A DNA stretch of 64,000 nt from Bryobacteraceae bacterium (GTDB lineage: Bacteria > Acidobacteriota > Terriglobia > Bryobacterales > Bryobacteraceae): contig BPGE01000001.1 of NCBI GenBank assembly GCA_026002875.1, positions 3,906,001 through 3,970,000 on the forward strand, in the 5' to 3' direction. Position 1 is the first letter of the stretch. Each line of letters begins with the position of its first letter. The notes under the pieces are model-generated. The model searched no databases, had not been told where the DNA came from, and worked only from the letters and a program-made list of their open reading frames with translations. Positions 44,591 through 51,356 of this stretch are shown here, one piece after another. A program made the position numbers and the translations under genes.

Positions 44591-44785
44591 GAATCGGAGA
44601 CTGCAGCCGGCTTCCCCGCCAGCGGATTTCCCGCCGCCTTCAAATTCCCCGCGCGCTTCTCGAGGGCTGCATCCCACCGCGGCCCCCCTGCCCTGCAGAT
44701 TCCCCGCCCTCCTCCCCAACGGGTTTCCCCTCGCGCTTGCGCGCCGGCTGCATCCCAACCGTGCCCGCTCCCGCAAGCGCTTGCC
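44591..44785. repeat. Dispersed hairpin repeat, copy 3
   Basis: Degenerate units of the family at 43.1 kb: TTCCCCGCGCGCTTCTCGAGG and TTTCCCCTCGCGCTTGCGCG, each followed by GGCTGCATCCCA. The palindrome GCAAGCGCTTGC at 44773-44784 closes the block. 44786-45000 holds nothing recognisable. Confidence 0.6.
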
Positions 44786-45000
44786 TCGCATCCCCCGCCC
44801 AACCCCAAACCGCAATCTTCCGAAACGAACCGAAACCCGCCCCGCGCAAACAGAGCCGCGCGGGAGCAGCCCGAAGGGCTGCGACCAAGCGGTTCAAACA
44901 CAACCTCCCCCACCCTCCGACACCCCCCTCGCGCCGCAGGCGCGGCCAGGCCGCCGCCGCACTTTCCCGGGCAGACCGCCCCAATCGAACCGCTATGTGA

Positions 45001-45170
45001 ATGAAAACACTTGACATCACGCCACGACTATGGCAAAGTTGAGGGCATGCGGGACGGCCGCAATCGTAGATGGGAGGTCGAAACAAATTCACCCAACTAT
45101 GTTTTTTCCGAAAAAATTGTCAACGGCCTCTGCAACTCGTTGTGCGGCGCGAACTTAACCAGGGGGGTCG
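45001..45170 (+). promoter_or_regulatory. Putative CRISPR leader
   Basis: A+T-rich for this genome (for example TATGTTTTTTCCGAAAAAAT near 45101-45120) and directly before the first repeat. The polarity is supported by the repeat's ATTGAGAC end, like the ATTGAAAC handle of other systems, and by a block of variant repeats next to it. TTGACA at 45011-45016 could be part of a promoter, but no well-spaced -10 is seen. Confidence 0.65.
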
Positions 45171-47944
45171 GTCAGACCTGAGCCCCGTTCAAAAGGGGAT
45201 TGAGAATGCTTCAGGCTTTCGTAGTTCGGCGCGTCCAAGTCAGACCTGAGCCCCGTTCAAAAGGGGATTGAGAATTGTCACTCCGATGTTAGAGTGACCG
45301 GCCAGCTGTCAGACCTGAGCCCCGTTCAAAAGGGGATTGAGAATAGTTACCGGAGCCACAGTGTCAATCCACTGCAGTCAGTCAGACCTGAGCCCCGTTC
45401 AAAAGGGGATTGAGAATCGTGTATGCAATTACCAGCAACACTTTCAGTCAGACCTGAGCCCCGTTCAAAAGGGGATTGAGAACGCGAAACCCACTCACTT
45501 TTCTATTGACAAACGTCAGACCTGAGCCCCGTTCAAAAGGGGATTGAGAACTTATGCGCCGCTTTTGGTTTCAGTTACGGCAGTCAGACCTGAGCCCCGT
45601 TCAAAAGGGGATTGAGAACGGTCTGGTTCAGCGGATAGGACGGGCTGCTGTCAGACCTGAGCCCCGTTCAAAAGGGGATTGAGACGAATACACATTAGCA
45701 ACTCTAAGAGTAATCTCGTCAGACCTGAGCCCCGTTCAAAAGGGGATTGAGACAATTTTTAGGAAAAAACCGCCGTGTTTTCAGGTCAGACCTGAGCCCC
45801 GTTCAAAAGGGGATTGAGACAAAATAGTCTTCCCGTTTAACAATATTGACAGTCAGACCTGAGCCCCGTTCAAAAGGGGATTGAGACAGGTCGCGTTTTT
45901 TCATTTTTGCCTCCTTTAAGTCAGACCTGAGCCCCGTTCAAAAGGGGATTGAGACACTTCTTGACACGCATCTTCCGTTGTTTCCAAGTCAGACCTGAGC
46001 CCCGTTCAAAAGGGGATTGAGACCCTTGTCCTTGTAAATATACTCAGTTATCTGAGTCAGACCTGAGCCCCGTTCAAAAGGGGATTGAGACTGAGCTCTT
46101 CGGCCTCGTACGCATCCAGAGGCGTCAGACCTGAGCCCCGTTCAAAAGGGGATTGAGACAGCCTCGTACCGGGCGCCTTTCCCGTCCAAGAGGTCAGACC
46201 TGAGCCCCGTTCAAAAGGGGATTGAGACTCATCCAAAATCACAACCTTCAACCCGCCATCTGTCAGACCTGAGCCCCGTTCAAAAGGGGATTGAGACGCA
46301 GAATTCAAACAAATTTTCTTAGTATTTTGTCAGACCTGAGCCCCGTTCAAAAGGGGATTGAGACATGCGGTGTACATAATAACCTCCATTTTTATTTTGT
46401 CAGACCTGAGCCCCGTTCAAAAGGGGATTGAGACGGCCGAATCAACCAGCCTGGCCCCGTTCTTGCGTCAGACCTGAGCCCCGTTCAAAAGGGGATTGAG
46501 ACACAGCCGCACTCGGCGGTAGCCGCCTGGGCTAAGTCAGACCTGAGCCCCGTTCAAAAGGGGATTGAGACACATAGCACCTCCAGCATGGAGGTGCCAG
46601 TTCCTGTCAGACCTGAGCCCCGTTCAAAAGGGGATTGAGACTCTTTAATAGTTCAATCATAGAGTCTCCTTTGTCAGACCTGAGCCCCGTTCAAAAGGGG
46701 ATTGAGACATTCTCCATTCGCGCCCGTTCTTGACAACTGTGTCAGACCTGAGCCCCGTTCAAAAGGGGATTGAGACAGATGCCCCGTTTGTCCCTATTCC
46801 ATTTCCTAGGTCAGACCTGAGCCCCGTTCAAAAGGGGATTGAGACTTTATCGGGTCCACAACGATTGCACCTGAAAGCGTCAGACCTGAGCCCCGTTCAA
46901 AAGGGGATTGAGACGGGGGGTGATGGACGTGAGAGCTCCGAACCAGTCGTCAGACCTGAGCCCCGTTCAAAAGGGGATTGAGACTGGCCTCCCAGGCAGC
47001 GTCGGCCTTCTCTTTCGTCAGACCTGAGCCCCGTTCAAAAGGGGATTGAGACGAGATTTCAGAATCACTTGCCGGCCGGCTTTGTCAGACCTGAGCCCCG
47101 TTCAAAAGGGGATTGAGACATGAGAGCGACAAACACGGTTGAGTTCCACAGGGGTCAGACCTGAGCCCCGTTCAAAAGGGGATTGAGACTCGTGGGTCTT
47201 TCATTTTCACCACTCTACCCAGTCAGACCTGAGCCCCGTTCAAAAGGGGATTGAGACAGATTTTGCTGTTCATTTGTGTTCTCCTGCCTGTCAGACCTGA
47301 GCCCCGTTCAAAAGGGGATTGAGACCGGGACCAACGCCGTTGTCCCACTCATCCCAGTCAGACCTGAGCCCCGTTCAAAAGGGGATTGAGACATGTCGTG
47401 GCTCCATGCCTCTTTCTTGGTCTTCATGTCAGACCTGAGCCCCGTTCAAAAGGGGATTGAGACGCCTACACCTATCAAGACGACAAAGGATTTTTGTCAG
47501 ACCTGAGCCCCGTTCAAAAGGGGATTGAGACCCTCAACCCATAAGAAAAGGGGGGCGCAAGCGTCAGACCTGAGCCCCGTTCAAAAGGGGATTGAGACCT
47601 TCCTTTTCTATATAATTTCGCACCATCTTCAGTCAGACCTGAGCCCCGTTCAAAAGGGGATTGAGACCCAGTCGGCCAGCAGATTTGTCACTTCTGCCAG
47701 GTCAGACCTGAGCCCCGTTCAGAAGGGGATTGAGACCCGCAGATCGGGCAGTACTCGCCCGTGTATTCGTCAGACCTGAGCCCCGTTCAAAAGGGGATTG
47801 AGACGCGGCCCAGGACCTGAGCACGAGCAGGACCGGTCAGTCAGACCTGAGCCCCGTTCAAAAGGGGATTGAGACTGTGTAGTATCCGGGCTTGAGCGCC
47901 CAGTATCCGTCAGACCTGAGCCCCGTTCAAAAGGGGATTGAGAC
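45171..47944 (+). CRISPR. CRISPR array: 41 repeats of 36 bp, 40 spacers
   Basis: Repeats begin GTCAGACCTGAGCCCC, have a GTTCAAAA loop between CCCC and GGGG, and end GGGGATTGAGAC. Repeats 1-7 (45171-45618) end GAGAA; repeats 8-41 end GAGAC; repeat 38 (47701) has one A-to-G change in the loop. Spacers are 30-37 bp, mostly 31-34. No two spacers are the same. Transcription is taken as left to right. No cas gene lies within 45 kb to the left or 16 kb to the right in this window, so it is orphan here. The reverse complements of many spacers look like gene starts (see findings). Confidence 0.98.
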
Positions 47945-48236: not shown

Positions 48237-49817
48237 ATGAGCCTGATCTCGCAGCGCCTGCAACTGGGAGTCAAGCAGCAGCAGATCCTGACGCCTGGAC
48301 TGGTGCAGATGGTCACCGTGCTTCAGCTGAACAAGCTGGAGCTGCGGGAGAAGATCGTGCAGGAGATCGCATCGAACCCGGTGCTGGAAGTCAGCGATGA
48401 AGGAGAAGAGCTGACGCCGGCCGAGGTTCAGGCGATGCTCGAAGCGGAACGCGCGCCGGAGCCGTCGGACAGGGAAGTCCTGCAGGTGACGATGGCGGCT
48501 GCCGAAGAGGCGGCGGCGGAGGCGGGCGAGCGTCTGACGGCCGAGGAGACGGCCACGGATGCGGCAGCGGCTGAACCCGCGGCCGAAGAAGAGCCGGCCG
48601 CGGCCAGCGCCGCGGAAAAAGCGGCCGACCCGTTCGAGCAGGTCGACTTCGGGGACTACTTCGACGAGTGGATGGATCCGGGTTTCCGGACGCAGGCGGC
48701 CGAAGACAGCGAGAAGCCGTCGTTCGAGCTGTTCCTGTCCGCTCCGGTGACGCTGAGCGAGCACCTGCGGCAGCAGCTGGCCCTCGTCGTTCTGGACGAA
48801 GAAGTGCGGGCGGCGGCCGATGCGATCATCGGCAACCTGGACGAGACGGGCTACCTGTCCGTGCCGCTCGAGGAGATCGCGCAGTCGGAGGGATTCTCCG
48901 AAAAAGCCCTGAAGGAAGCGCTGGCGGCGGTGCAGCGGCTGGATCCGGCCGGCGTGGGGGCGCGCTCGCTGCAGGAATGCCTGCTGCTGCAGCTGGACAG
49001 CCGCGGGGCGCGGGGCGGCGTGGCGTGGCAGATCGTGGAGAACCACCTGAAGCTGGTCGAGTCGCGCAGCACGAAGGAGCTGATGCGGCTGCTGGGCCGG
49101 CCGCAGGAGCACATCGAGATCGCGCTGGAGGTGATCCGGCACCTCGACCCGAAGCCCGGGCTGAAATACTCCGGTCCCGGGGCGCGGCAGGTGGAGCCGG
49201 ACGTCTTCATCACGAAGAACGGGGACGAGTACGTCATCCAGATCGCGGACGAGGATCTGCCCCCGCTGCGCATCAACGGCAGCTACCGGCGGCTGCTTGA
49301 TCCCGGACAGGGCGCCGACAAGGAGACGAAGAACTACGTCAAGGAGCGCTATCAGTCGGCGCTGCAGCTGATCCGGAACATCGAGCAGCGGCGGCAGACG
49401 ATCCTGAGGGTGTGCGAAGCGATCGTGCGCCGGCAGCGCGAGTTTCTGGAGAACGGCATCGACGCGCTGCGGCCGATGATGATCAAAGAGGTGGCGGAGG
49501 AGATCGGGGTGCATCCGTCGACGGTGAGCCGGGCGGTGGCCAACAAGTTCGCGCACACGCCGCAGGGCGTGTTCGAGCTGCGGTTTTTCTTCTCCGAAGC
49601 GGTGCAGGGCCCGTCGGGCGGGTCGATTCCGCTGCTGACGCTGAAGCGGATGGTGAAGAAGATGATCGAAGAGGAGGACAAGAGGAAGCCTCTGACCGAC
49701 GATCAGATCGCCGCCGCGCTGCAGAAGCAGGGCATCCAGGTGACCCGCAGGACGGTGGCCAAGTACCGGGAGGACATGAAGATTCCCTCGACGCACCACC
49801 GCCGCGCCAGGGACTGA
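48237..49817 (+). CDS. rpoN: RNA polymerase sigma-54 factor
   Basis: 526 residues. Region I is Gln/Leu-rich (SQRLQLGVKQQQILTPGLVQ), region II is acidic and unusually long (about residues 55-165, rich in Glu and Ala), region III includes the core-binding and HTH parts, and the RpoN box RRTVAKYRE lies near residue 505. It directs transcription at -24/-12 promoters with enhancer proteins. The 292-bp gap between the CRISPR array and this gene shows no feature; a TATGAT hexamer ends 8 bases before the ATG. First gene of the rpoN-hpf-rapZ cluster. Confidence 0.95.
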   Translation: MSLISQRLQLGVKQQQILTPGLVQMVTVLQLNKLELREKIVQEIASNPVLEVSDEGEELTPAEVQAMLEAERAPEPSDREVLQVTMAAAEEAAAEAGERLTAEETATDAAAAEPAAEEEPAAASAAEKAADPFEQVDFGDYFDEWMDPGFRTQAAEDSEKPSFELFLSAPVTLSEHLRQQLALVVLDEEVRAAADAIIGNLDETGYLSVPLEEIAQSEGFSEKALKEALAAVQRLDPAGVGARSLQECLLLQLDSRGARGGVAWQIVENHLKLVESRSTKELMRLLGRPQEHIEIALEVIRHLDPKPGLKYSGPGARQVEPDVFITKNGDEYVIQIADEDLPPLRINGSYRRLLDPGQGADKETKNYVKERYQSALQLIRNIEQRRQTILRVCEAIVRRQREFLENGIDALRPMMIKEVAEEIGVHPSTVSRAVANKFAHTPQGVFELRFFFSEAVQGPSGGSIPLLTLKRMVKKMIEEEDKRKPLTDDQIAAALQKQGIQVTRRTVAKYREDMKIPSTHHRRARD

Positions 49818-49869
49818 AGAGCAGTCTGCGGCGCGGCCGCACTCGCGCCGGGAATGGAAAGGCAAGTCC

Positions 49870-50484
49870 ATGAAAATCACATTCACCGGAAAGCAGGACA
49901 AGCTGACTCCCTCGCAGGAGCGGAAGCTCGCCATGGCGTTCGCGCGCCTCTCGAAGCTGCTCGAGCGGCGGGGCGAGAAGGGAGCCCAGGTCATCTTGAG
50001 CGAAGAGCGGCACCTCCGCCACGCGGAGGTGCGGGTGAACTTCTACGATCACGCGCTGTTTGGCAAGGGATCGGCGCCGGACCAGTTCACGGCGATCATG
50101 GACGCGGTCGAGAAGGTGGAGAAGCAGGCGCAGCGGCTGCTGGAGAAGAAGCGCGAGAAGAAGCGCTCGTCGTCGCCGCGCAAAGAAGCGGCGCTGGCCG
50201 CGGCCGAGTCCGTGGAAGAGTTCGGCGCGGAAGCCGCCGCCCCGCGGAAGGCGAAAAAGGGAAAGCGGCAGGCGGCGGCTGAAATCGAAGAGTCCGAGGC
50301 GGCGCGGCCGGCGCGCGTGGTGCGGGCCGCATCGCGCGCCAACGGCAAGCCGATGACGCTGGAAGAAGCGATGCTGGCCATGGAGGACGGGCGGGACTAC
50401 CTGCTGTACCGCGACGCGGACACGGACCGGCCGCACATCCTGATCCGGCGCAGCGACGGGGCGGTCGATCTCGTGGAAGCCTGA
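49870..50484 (+). CDS. hpf: Ribosome hibernation promoting factor, long form
   Basis: 204 residues. N-terminal HPF/YfiA domain (residues 1-100, KITFTGKQDKLTPSQERKL) binds the 30S decoding site; a long Lys/Ala/Glu-rich linker (105-155) leads to a C-terminal dimerisation domain ending PMTLEEAMLAMEDG...DYLLYRD. Long HPF can make 100S ribosome dimers alone. The place behind rpoN is conserved in many bacteria, hence its old name sigma-54 modulation protein. Only 2 bp separate its stop from rapZ. Confidence 0.92.
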   Translation: MKITFTGKQDKLTPSQERKLAMAFARLSKLLERRGEKGAQVILSEERHLRHAEVRVNFYDHALFGKGSAPDQFTAIMDAVEKVEKQAQRLLEKKREKKRSSSPRKEAALAAAESVEEFGAEAAAPRKAKKGKRQAAAEIEESEAARPARVVRAASRANGKPMTLEEAMLAMEDGRDYLLYRDADTDRPHILIRRSDGAVDLVEA

Positions 50485-50486
50485 CC

Positions 50487-51356
50487 ATGACCGCCGCCAG
50501 CCGTTCGCCCGAGCTGGTCATCATCACCGGCCTGAGCGGCTCGGGCAAGGGCACGGTGCTCAGAACGCTGGAGGACCACGGCTACTACGCCGTCGACAAC
50601 CTGCCGCTCGGGCTGATCGAAACGTTCGCGGAGCTGACGCAGGACTCGCCGAACATCCGCCGGGCGGCTCTCGTGGTGGACATCCGCGAGCGCGAGCAGC
50701 TGCAGCAGCTGCCGGACATCGTGGCCAAGCTGCGCAAGAAGCTGCGGACGCGGCTGCTGTTTCTCGACGCCGACGACGAAGCGCTGGTGCGCCGCTACAG
50801 CGAGACGCGGCGGCCGCATCCGCTGGGCGGGCACCGCAGCGTGCTGCGCAGCGTGCAGCTTGAGCGCAAACAGCTTGCCGGCATCCGCGCGCTGGCCGAT
50901 TTCGTGCTCAACACGAGCGAGCTGAACGTCCATCAGCTGCGCAAGCGGGTGGGCGAGATCTTCGGCGCGCCCGACGACGCGGGGCTGCAGGTCCACGTGA
51001 TGAGCTTCGGCTTCAAGCACGGGCTGCCGCCGGAAAGCGATCTCGTGTTCGATGTCCGGTTCCTGCCCAACCCGAACTACATCCCCGAGCTCCGCAAGCT
51101 CACCGGCAAGCATGCGGGCGTGGCGCGCTACGTGCGCAGCTTCCCGCAGACGCAGGAGTTTCTGGACCGGATCACGGGGCTGCTGCTGTACCTGATGCCG
51201 CACTATGTGGCGGAGGGGAAGAGCTACCTGACCATCGCGTTCGGCTGCACGGGCGGGCGGCACCGCTCCGTGATGATCGCCGGAGAGGTGGCGCGGCGGC
51301 TGAAAAAAGCAGGCTATTCCGTCCGCACGGCCCATCGCGACATCGAAAAAGAGTAG
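50487..51356 (+). CDS. rapZ: RNase adapter / nucleotide-binding protein RapZ
   Basis: 289 residues. P-loop ITGLSGSGKG near residue 13-22 (here SGSGKG rather than the usual SGAGKS), then EDHGYYAVDNLP, and the C-terminal domain with FGCTGGRHRSV, the signature of the RNA/metabolite-binding part. In E. coli RapZ directs RNase E to a small RNA that controls amino-sugar synthesis; in other phyla its role is less clear. Follows hpf closely. The usual neighbours ptsN and hprK are absent. Confidence 0.93.
   Translation: MTAASRSPELVIITGLSGSGKGTVLRTLEDHGYYAVDNLPLGLIETFAELTQDSPNIRRAALVVDIREREQLQQLPDIVAKLRKKLRTRLLFLDADDEALVRRYSETRRPHPLGGHRSVLRSVQLERKQLAGIRALADFVLNTSELNVHQLRKRVGEIFGAPDDAGLQVHVMSFGFKHGLPPESDLVFDVRFLPNPNYIPELRKLTGKHAGVARYVRSFPQTQEFLDRITGLLLYLMPHYVAEGKSYLTIAFGCTGGRHRSVMIAGEVARRLKKAGYSVRTAHRDIEKE

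What the first reader, a model, noticed from the sequence alone, without database searches (positions are those of the whole stretch)
45888..47631. CRISPR spacers antisense to translation start sites
The reverse complements of spacers 11, 18, 21, 22 and 31 (45888-45919, 46365-46398, 46572-46605, 46642-46672, 47258-47289) each contain AGGAG or GGAGG followed after 4-7 bases by ATG. Examples are AAAGGAGG-CAAAA-ATG and AAAGGAG-ACTCT-ATG. Spacers 12, 30, 33 and 36 are weaker cases. On the plus strand I find no clean case. A rough count at equal base use predicts well under one by chance in 40 spacers. Since the array is read left to right, crRNAs would base-pair with mRNA start regions. This is expected for RNA-targeting type III systems, or for spacer capture from RNA by RT-Cas1; both are inference. 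It could also reflect selection for silencing of gene starts. Spacers 25 and 38 reverse-complement to CxxC coding sequences.
Basis: partly seen in the sequence, partly recalled or inferred. Interest (0 to 1): 0.8.

Follow-up and report, generated by a model that had tools for sequence, protein, structure and literature searches.

The report
CRISPR guides aimed at gene starts
A bacterial CRISPR memory of the kind that attacks RNA holds guides that would pair with messenger RNA, with more of them at the starts of genes than expected; the strand preference is already known for this kind of system, and the gene-start surplus is a weaker result that still needs its targets found.

Summary
In detail: 5 of 40 spacers of the window array carry AGGAG/GGAGG plus ATG on the antisense strand, 0 of 40 on the sense strand (shuffle mean 0.20; none of 1000 reached 5). 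The array shares repeat and leader with an array beside an RT-less type III-A locus elsewhere in the genome, so crRNAs most likely read left to right. Held-out tests are mixed: the two sister arrays give 0 of 61, a congener's array 10 antisense to 1 sense of 280. A codon model that needs no start motif finds spacers antisense to coding sequence in type III arrays (249 of 385 in this genus), not in type I arrays (117 of 260). This strand bias is known for type III. The less expected part is a surplus of gene starts: 16 of 385 spacers, both strands, against 0.5-2.1% in eight phages and 3 of 260 type I spacers. RT is not its cause here: none in the genome, and a type III array class with RT-Cas1 at two of three tested loci gives 1 of 181. 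No protospacer was found, so no target gene is proven.

The parts
45171..47944 (+). CRISPR array C: 41 repeats (GTCAGACCTGAGCCCCGTTCAAAAGGGGATTGAGAC), 40 spacers, crRNA strand most likely plus
44971..45170 (+). leader; last 200 bases 97.5% and 97.0% identical to the leaders of arrays A and B, while the 150 bases after the last full repeat agree by 25-45% only
45171..45619 (+). seven leader-end repeats with 37-nt variant ends (GAGAAT in repeats 1-4, GAGAAC in 5-7); polarity marker
45888..45919 (-). spacer 11; reverse complement AAAGGAGG-CAAAA-ATG AAA AAA CGC GAC
46365..46398 (-). spacer 18; reverse complement TGGAGG-TTATT-ATG TAC ACC GCA
46572..46605 (-). spacer 21; motif present but inside a perfect 8-bp hairpin, a doubtful case
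   Evidence: hairpin read from the sequence
46642..46672 (-). spacer 22; reverse complement AAAGGAG-ACTCT-ATG ATT GAA CTA TTA
47258..47289 (-). spacer 31; reverse complement GCAGGAG-AACACAA-ATG AAC AGC AAA
47393..47427 (-). spacer 33; reverse complement opens with ATG and an open frame MKTKKEAWSHD, no SD inside the spacer
47599..47631 (-). spacer 36; frame KMVRNYIEKE, weak case
46846..46878 (-). spacer 25; CxxC frame AFRCNRCGPDK
47737..47768 (-). spacer 38; CxxC frame EYTGEYCPIC

Best explanation
The array is one of three arrays that share a repeat and leader, one of them beside a type III-A CRISPR locus without reverse transcriptase. Its crRNAs (plus strand; the handle ATTGAGAC is named from recalled type III practice) would pair with invader mRNA; about nine in ten spacers of the genus are estimated to be antisense to coding sequence. 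The strand bias most likely arises because only crRNAs that pair with transcripts let the Csm-Cas10 complex act, so spacers of the wrong strand give no protection and are lost (published for type III; inferred here). A surplus of these spacers spans ribosome-binding sites and start codons, four to five times the median rate in eight phages. Most likely cause: Cas1-Cas2 of this III-A kind takes up start-proximal sequence more often, as reported for the RT-less III-A system of Streptococcus thermophilus, and selection then sets the strand; easier pairing with weakly folded start regions may add to it. Shown: motif, array polarity, subtype of the locus, absence of RT, codon bias. Inferred: targets, acquisition, selection. 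The confidence is for the whole picture; I hold the orientation at above 0.9 and the uptake step well below that, and the rivals overlap with it.
For: Subtype and link: the listed places of the repeat fall in three arrays; array A lies beside Cas2, Cas1, a second Cas1, two CARF proteins, Cas6, Cas10/Csm1 with HD and GGDD, Csm2-5, Csx1; leaders 97% identical. Controls: the type I-E array of the same genome 26 of 48, type I-C-like arrays of relatives 91 of 212 by the codon model. Start surplus: both strands together 16 of 385 (4.2%) against 0.50-2.13% (median 0.83%) of 33-mers in eight phages and 3 of 260 type I spacers (Fisher 0.03). No RT. Precedents: PMC8482600 (65% coding strand in type III), PMC7515739 (strand bias by selection without RT), PMC9048733 section 11 (start-proximal, coding-strand uptake by RT-less III-A).
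Against: Arrays A and B have no strict case in 61 spacers. The array beside the III-A locus of another genus (G077) gives 1 antisense, 1 sense of 111. Without array C the start surplus is 11 of 345: p 1.8e-4 against the median phage but 0.12 against the most SD-rich one (phiFa), and 0.11 against type I. With the loosest motif the III-A-like and 'CCCC..GGGG' classes do not differ (p 0.39). No protospacer is known, so SD use of the true targets is unknown. In G002 the strand bias is alike in newer and older halves (91 of 142, 87 of 143), which gives no sign of loss with age; in array C it is 11 of 20 and 17 of 20. I-C-like spacers lean to the other strand (p 0.046).
Confidence: 0.72

Rival explanations
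1. Ordinary antisense type III array with no positional preference: the spacers are drawn evenly along transcripts, and the targeted phages simply have short genes with strong Shine-Dalgarno sites, so start sites are hit often.
For: Strand bias alone is well supported. The most SD-rich phage in the panel reaches 2.13% on both strands, and the held-out 11 of 345 is not clearly above it (p 0.12). Arrays A and B show no surplus.
Against: The panel median is 0.83% and the own prophage region 0.95%; type I spacers give 3 of 260, of which the same genome's I-E array 1 of 48; 'CCCC..GGGG' type III arrays share the strand bias and give 1 of 181.
Confidence: 0.3
2. Selection rather than uptake: crRNAs aimed at ribosome-binding regions work better, because these stretches of mRNA are little folded or because binding there also blocks translation, and they are kept.
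For: Targets with the looser motif (4 bases, ATG) are less folded (mean -4.3 against -7.3 kcal/mol, 31 against 354 spacers, p 2.6e-5) and lower in GC (0.496 against 0.588). Selection is the published source of the strand bias (PMC7515739, passages read).
Against: The folding difference follows in part from the AT-richness of any start region. No change of strand bias with spacer age in G002. The other type III class, which needs RNA pairing as well, shows no surplus with the strict motif (1 of 181).
Confidence: 0.25
3. Capture of spacers from RNA by RT-Cas1.
For: Antisense orientation and gene starts could come from mRNA fragments.
Against: No RVT_1 match in the complete genome, while the same search rings in 3 of 14 control genomes; none in G002. 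Of three Cas1 ORFs tested beside 'CCCC..GGGG' arrays two are RT-Cas1 fusions; the 39 spacers of those two genomes hold no strict case though 26 of 39 look antisense, and the whole class gives 1 of 181.
Confidence: 0.03
4. Chance find in one array, picked out of many possible patterns.
For: Pattern chosen after reading this array; 0 of 61 in the sister arrays; one of the five is a hairpin.
Against: The congener array repeats it with the same motif, 10 to 1 of 280, and the codon model, blind to the motif, agrees on orientation.
Confidence: 0.05

Closest known systems
Type III strand bias in natural arrays (Vink et al. 2021, PMC8482600; passages read)
   Same: On average 65% of type III spacers match the coding strand so that crRNA pairs with mRNA; type I-E prefers the template strand.
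   Different: That work mapped protospacers; here orientation is inferred from codon composition and start motifs. Position within genes is not treated in the passages seen: 'start codon' and 'gene start' occur 0 times and 'translation initiation' only in the reference list.
RT-less type III-A adaptation in Streptococcus thermophilus (Zhang et al. 2021, seen only through the review PMC9048733, section 11 read whole)
   Same: No RT; spacers enriched about 10-50 bp downstream of start codons and on the coding strand; preference for stem-loop DNA.
   Different: New uptake from host genome and plasmids in another bacterium; here old arrays against unknown invaders, with the site spanning the ribosome-binding site itself.
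Thermus thermophilus type III adaptation to phage (Artamonova et al. 2020, PMC7515739; abstract and passages read)
   Same: No RT-dependent uptake; antisense bias explained by selection of protective spacers.
   Different: The positional bias reported there is to the early region of one phage; the passages seen do not treat gene starts.
RT-Cas1 type III systems (relatives G186 and G041 here; Silas et al. 2016 seen only as cited in the review)
   Same: Antisense bias is present in the 'CCCC..GGGG' array class (120 of 177).
   Different: RVT_1 absent from this genome; no start-site surplus in that class with the strict motif.

Membership tests
Type III-A CRISPR-Cas | Cas10/Csm1 with palm GGDD and HD | tested here: met
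   L007:8569-11067, PF22335 2.5e-32, PF18211 2.4e-16, HD at 18 and GGDD at 642
Type III-A CRISPR-Cas | Csm2, Csm3, Csm4, Csm5 beside it | tested here: met
Type III-A CRISPR-Cas | the window array belongs to this locus | tested here: inconclusive
   array A beside the locus has the identical repeat and a 97% identical leader; nine ORFs within about 8 kb of the window array match no Cas family and no Cas1 lies in the window, so use in trans is inferred
Type III-A CRISPR-Cas | crRNA made and loaded, cOA signalling | not testable with these tools
   needs RNA and biochemistry; CARF proteins are present
RT-Cas1 spacer capture from RNA | reverse transcriptase fused to or beside Cas1 | tested here: not met
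   0 matches to PF00078 in the 4.86 Mb genome
Start-proximal type III-A adaptation (S. thermophilus kind) | new spacers enriched just downstream of start codons on the coding strand | tested here: inconclusive
   old spacers enriched at SD-start sites, but targets unknown and no acquisition data
Gene-start silencing | crRNA lowers translation of the target | not testable with these tools
   no target identified

The most novel reading that the evidence does not exclude
Two separable layers shape type III memory: selection fixes the strand in all type III arrays, while the RT-less III-A Cas1-Cas2 (here with a second, diverged Cas1) by itself draws spacers from translation-start regions; RT-Cas1-linked arrays have the first layer and lack the second.
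Probability: 0.3. Interest if true: 0.65.

Novelty: new member of a known kind. Interest (0 to 1): 0.45.

Why it matters
How systems without reverse transcriptase come to prefer transcribed or start-proximal sequence is left open in the review read (PMC9048733, section 11). Natural arrays with several hundred spacers, with a type I array in the same genome as control, let this be tested by sequence alone. If the start-site surplus is an uptake preference, it would say what DNA structure or transcription state Cas1-Cas2 sees.

Tried and rejected
Protospacer search: eight start-spanning or coding spacers as partly degenerate exact patterns in IMG/VR gave 0 hits for 8 of 8 patterns; four array stretches against phages (C, B, two of 8000 bases from G002) and one against plasmids (C) gave only chance-level hits, best E 0.2; all spacers against the stretches over 4 kb held at that time gave at most 19-base matches, with each spacer's own array region, and for G002 and G001 spacers the whole loci of their arrays, left out. 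Array A and part of the G002 array were not sent to phages. RT-Cas1 was rejected. Chance in one array was rejected. A hairpin preference was looked for: mean folding z -0.34 in 385 genus spacers (p 8e-7) against -0.18 in 189 type I spacers (p 0.08); a small effect, left open. No base preference at spacer ends stood out. The one genome-contig scan, with Cas1, gave one locus at 40% identity, used only as a subject. Taxon was not determined.

Choice of arrays and dropped rows: the repeat-end pattern matched 57 of 400 relatives but its places were listed in part, so I fetched arrays whose places were listed there or; 32 genomes outside the genus enter the counts, and larger matches such as G271, G351 and G032 were not fetched. 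In one search the array on L158 (2 spacers) was dropped by script; L126 and L128 (4 and 2 stretches, repeat edge unresolved) were left out but stand; spacers outside 24-46 bases were not counted; the G005 array gave no chain and was not used; G031 and G106 arrays were fetched in part. G176's four spacers stood in the first III-like class and were moved. One search counts some duplicate spacers (592 in class III-A-like). The 'own genome stretches' contain arrays A and C and the I-E array.

Full report
What is there. Window 45171-47944 holds 41 copies of a 36-nt repeat and 40 spacers. The window is G000:C1:3906001-3970000 of a one-contig genome of 4.86 Mb. With up to 3 mismatches the repeat occurs 105 times in the genome (41 forward, 64 reverse); the listed places fall in three arrays: A (28 full repeats, about 2.114-2.116 Mb), B (35, about 2.587-2.589 Mb) and C, the window array; these make 104, and one reverse match is not in the list. 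The leaders are 97% identical over 200 bases, the far ends not alike. The first seven repeats of C carry stepwise variants at the leader end. So C is most likely transcribed from left to right; no RNA data were available. A pattern scan marks no plus-strand promoter in the leader and one on the minus strand. Nine ORFs near the array match no Cas family in Pfam or PADLOC.

Which system. Array A lies beside Cas2, Cas1, a diverged second Cas1, two CARF proteins, Cas6, Cas10/Csm1, Csm2-Csm5 and a further Csx1. Csm1 has HD and GGDD. This is type III-A. A type I-E locus with its own 53-repeat array lies at about 1.57-1.58 Mb. No reverse transcriptase of PF00078 is in the genome, nor in congeners G001, G002, G004 or in G077; G003 has one and G031 two.

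Test of the observation. Held out, A and B have 0 and 0 of 61. Congener G002 has 10 antisense and 1 sense of 280 distinct spacers, and none of 300 shuffles reached 10; with a looser motif (4 bases, ATG) 23 and 4. Over the genus: 15 and 1 of 385; looser 31 and 4. The I-E array gives 0 and 1 of 48.

Orientation without the motif. A codon model trained on long ORFs of six of the eight phages tells the coding strand of a 33-mer in about 70% of cases (leave-one-phage-out, 67-77%). It calls the antisense strand coding in 28 of 40 (C), 43 of 61 (A and B), 175 of 280 (G002), 249 of 385 (genus, p 9e-9); scaled for its accuracy, about 0.87 of genus spacers. After removing every spacer with a loose SD-start on either strand it is still 198 of 309. 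Type III-like arrays of other genera give 130 of 204 and 120 of 177 in two repeat classes; type I gives 117 of 260, and type I-C-like alone 91 of 212, which leans to the other strand (p 0.046). The I-C label rests on repeat form, the III-like label on repeat form except where loci were tested.

Are starts in surplus? Orientation cannot change the sum over both strands, so that sum tests position. It is 16 of 385 (4.2%) in the genus and 11 of 345 (3.2%) without C. Eight phage records give 0.50-2.13%, median 0.83%; own genome stretches 0.77%, own prophage region 0.95%, stretches around relatives' terminases 0.50%. Type I spacers give 3 of 260 (Fisher p 0.03 with C, 0.11 without). So a surplus is likely but rests in part on C, and the true targets are unknown.

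RT is not the cause. The 'CCCC..GGGG' arrays of relatives share the strand bias. Of this class three loci were tested by domain search: G186 and G041 have RT-Cas1 fusions of 714 and 820 residues, beside III-D-like and III-C-like effector genes; a Cas1 ORF beside a G057 array has no RT in the same frame, and an RT elsewhere in G057 was not looked for. The class gives 1 strict case in 181, against 25 of 592 in the III-A-like class (p 0.016; antisense only 0.024; without C 0.057); with the 4-base motif p is 0.036 and 0.012; the loosest motif shows no difference (p 0.39). The two genomes with RT-Cas1 shown hold 39 of these spacers: 0 strict cases, 26 antisense by the codon model. Several comparisons were made, so these p values are guides only. 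G031, which contributes 5 of the 25, has III-A-like repeats but no homologue of seven III-A proteins within the 60 kb looked at.

Mechanism. Known: type III complexes need RNA pairing, and strand bias can arise by selection without RT (PMC7515739, PMC8482600, passages). Known through a review: an RT-less III-A system takes up more spacers 10-50 bp downstream of start codons and from the coding strand (PMC9048733, section 11 read whole; the original was not held under the DOI I recalled). My reading joins the two: uptake sets position, selection sets strand. Selection for weakly folded targets is a live rival: start-spanning targets fold less (-4.3 against -7.3 kcal/mol), though their lower GC explains part of it.

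In print. Searches turned up the strand bias and the S. thermophilus result; in their listings, and in the passages read of four papers (PMC8482600, PMC7515739, PMC9048733, PMC6452263), I saw no report of Shine-Dalgarno-spanning spacers in natural type III arrays. The library lacks most subscription journals, so this is no proof of novelty.

Noticed in passing
L124:1397-3538 (G186) and L121:2355-4814 (G041): RT-Cas1 fusions of 714 and 820 residues beside type III arrays of relatives, with III-D-like and III-C-like effector genes.
   Followed up: partly
L007:3670-4416 (genome about 2118670-2119416): A second, diverged Cas1 right after Cas1 in the III-A locus; the locus of G077 has the same pair.
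   Followed up: partly
L008:13413-13964 (genome about 978.4-979.0 kb): A lone 184-residue protein with only the N-terminal part of Cas1; the simple repeat finder saw no array in the 30 kb held there.
   Followed up: no
L010, L011; genome 1580369-1583563: A type I-E array of 53 repeats with 48 distinct spacers among 52, beside Cas3, Cas5 and Cas1 of type I-E.
   Followed up: yes
window 45171-45619: Leader-end repeats gained one base (GAGAC to GAGAAC, then GAGAAT), a clear time mark inside one array.
   Followed up: partly
array A spacers 11 and 15; array B spacers 31 and 32: Duplicated spacers; A11/A15 in reverse complement reads GGGAGGAAAGCC-GTG, a possible GTG start.
   Followed up: partly
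genome 1586632-1587034 and 2589777-2590290: Short-period GC-rich direct repeats (TGGGATGCAGCC...) near the I-E array and array B; similar words stand at window 44640-44760.
   Followed up: no
window 48237-51353: Sigma-54 factor gene (PF04552, PF04963, PF00309), then an S30AE ribosome-associated protein and a RapZ-like gene, right after the array.
   Followed up: partly
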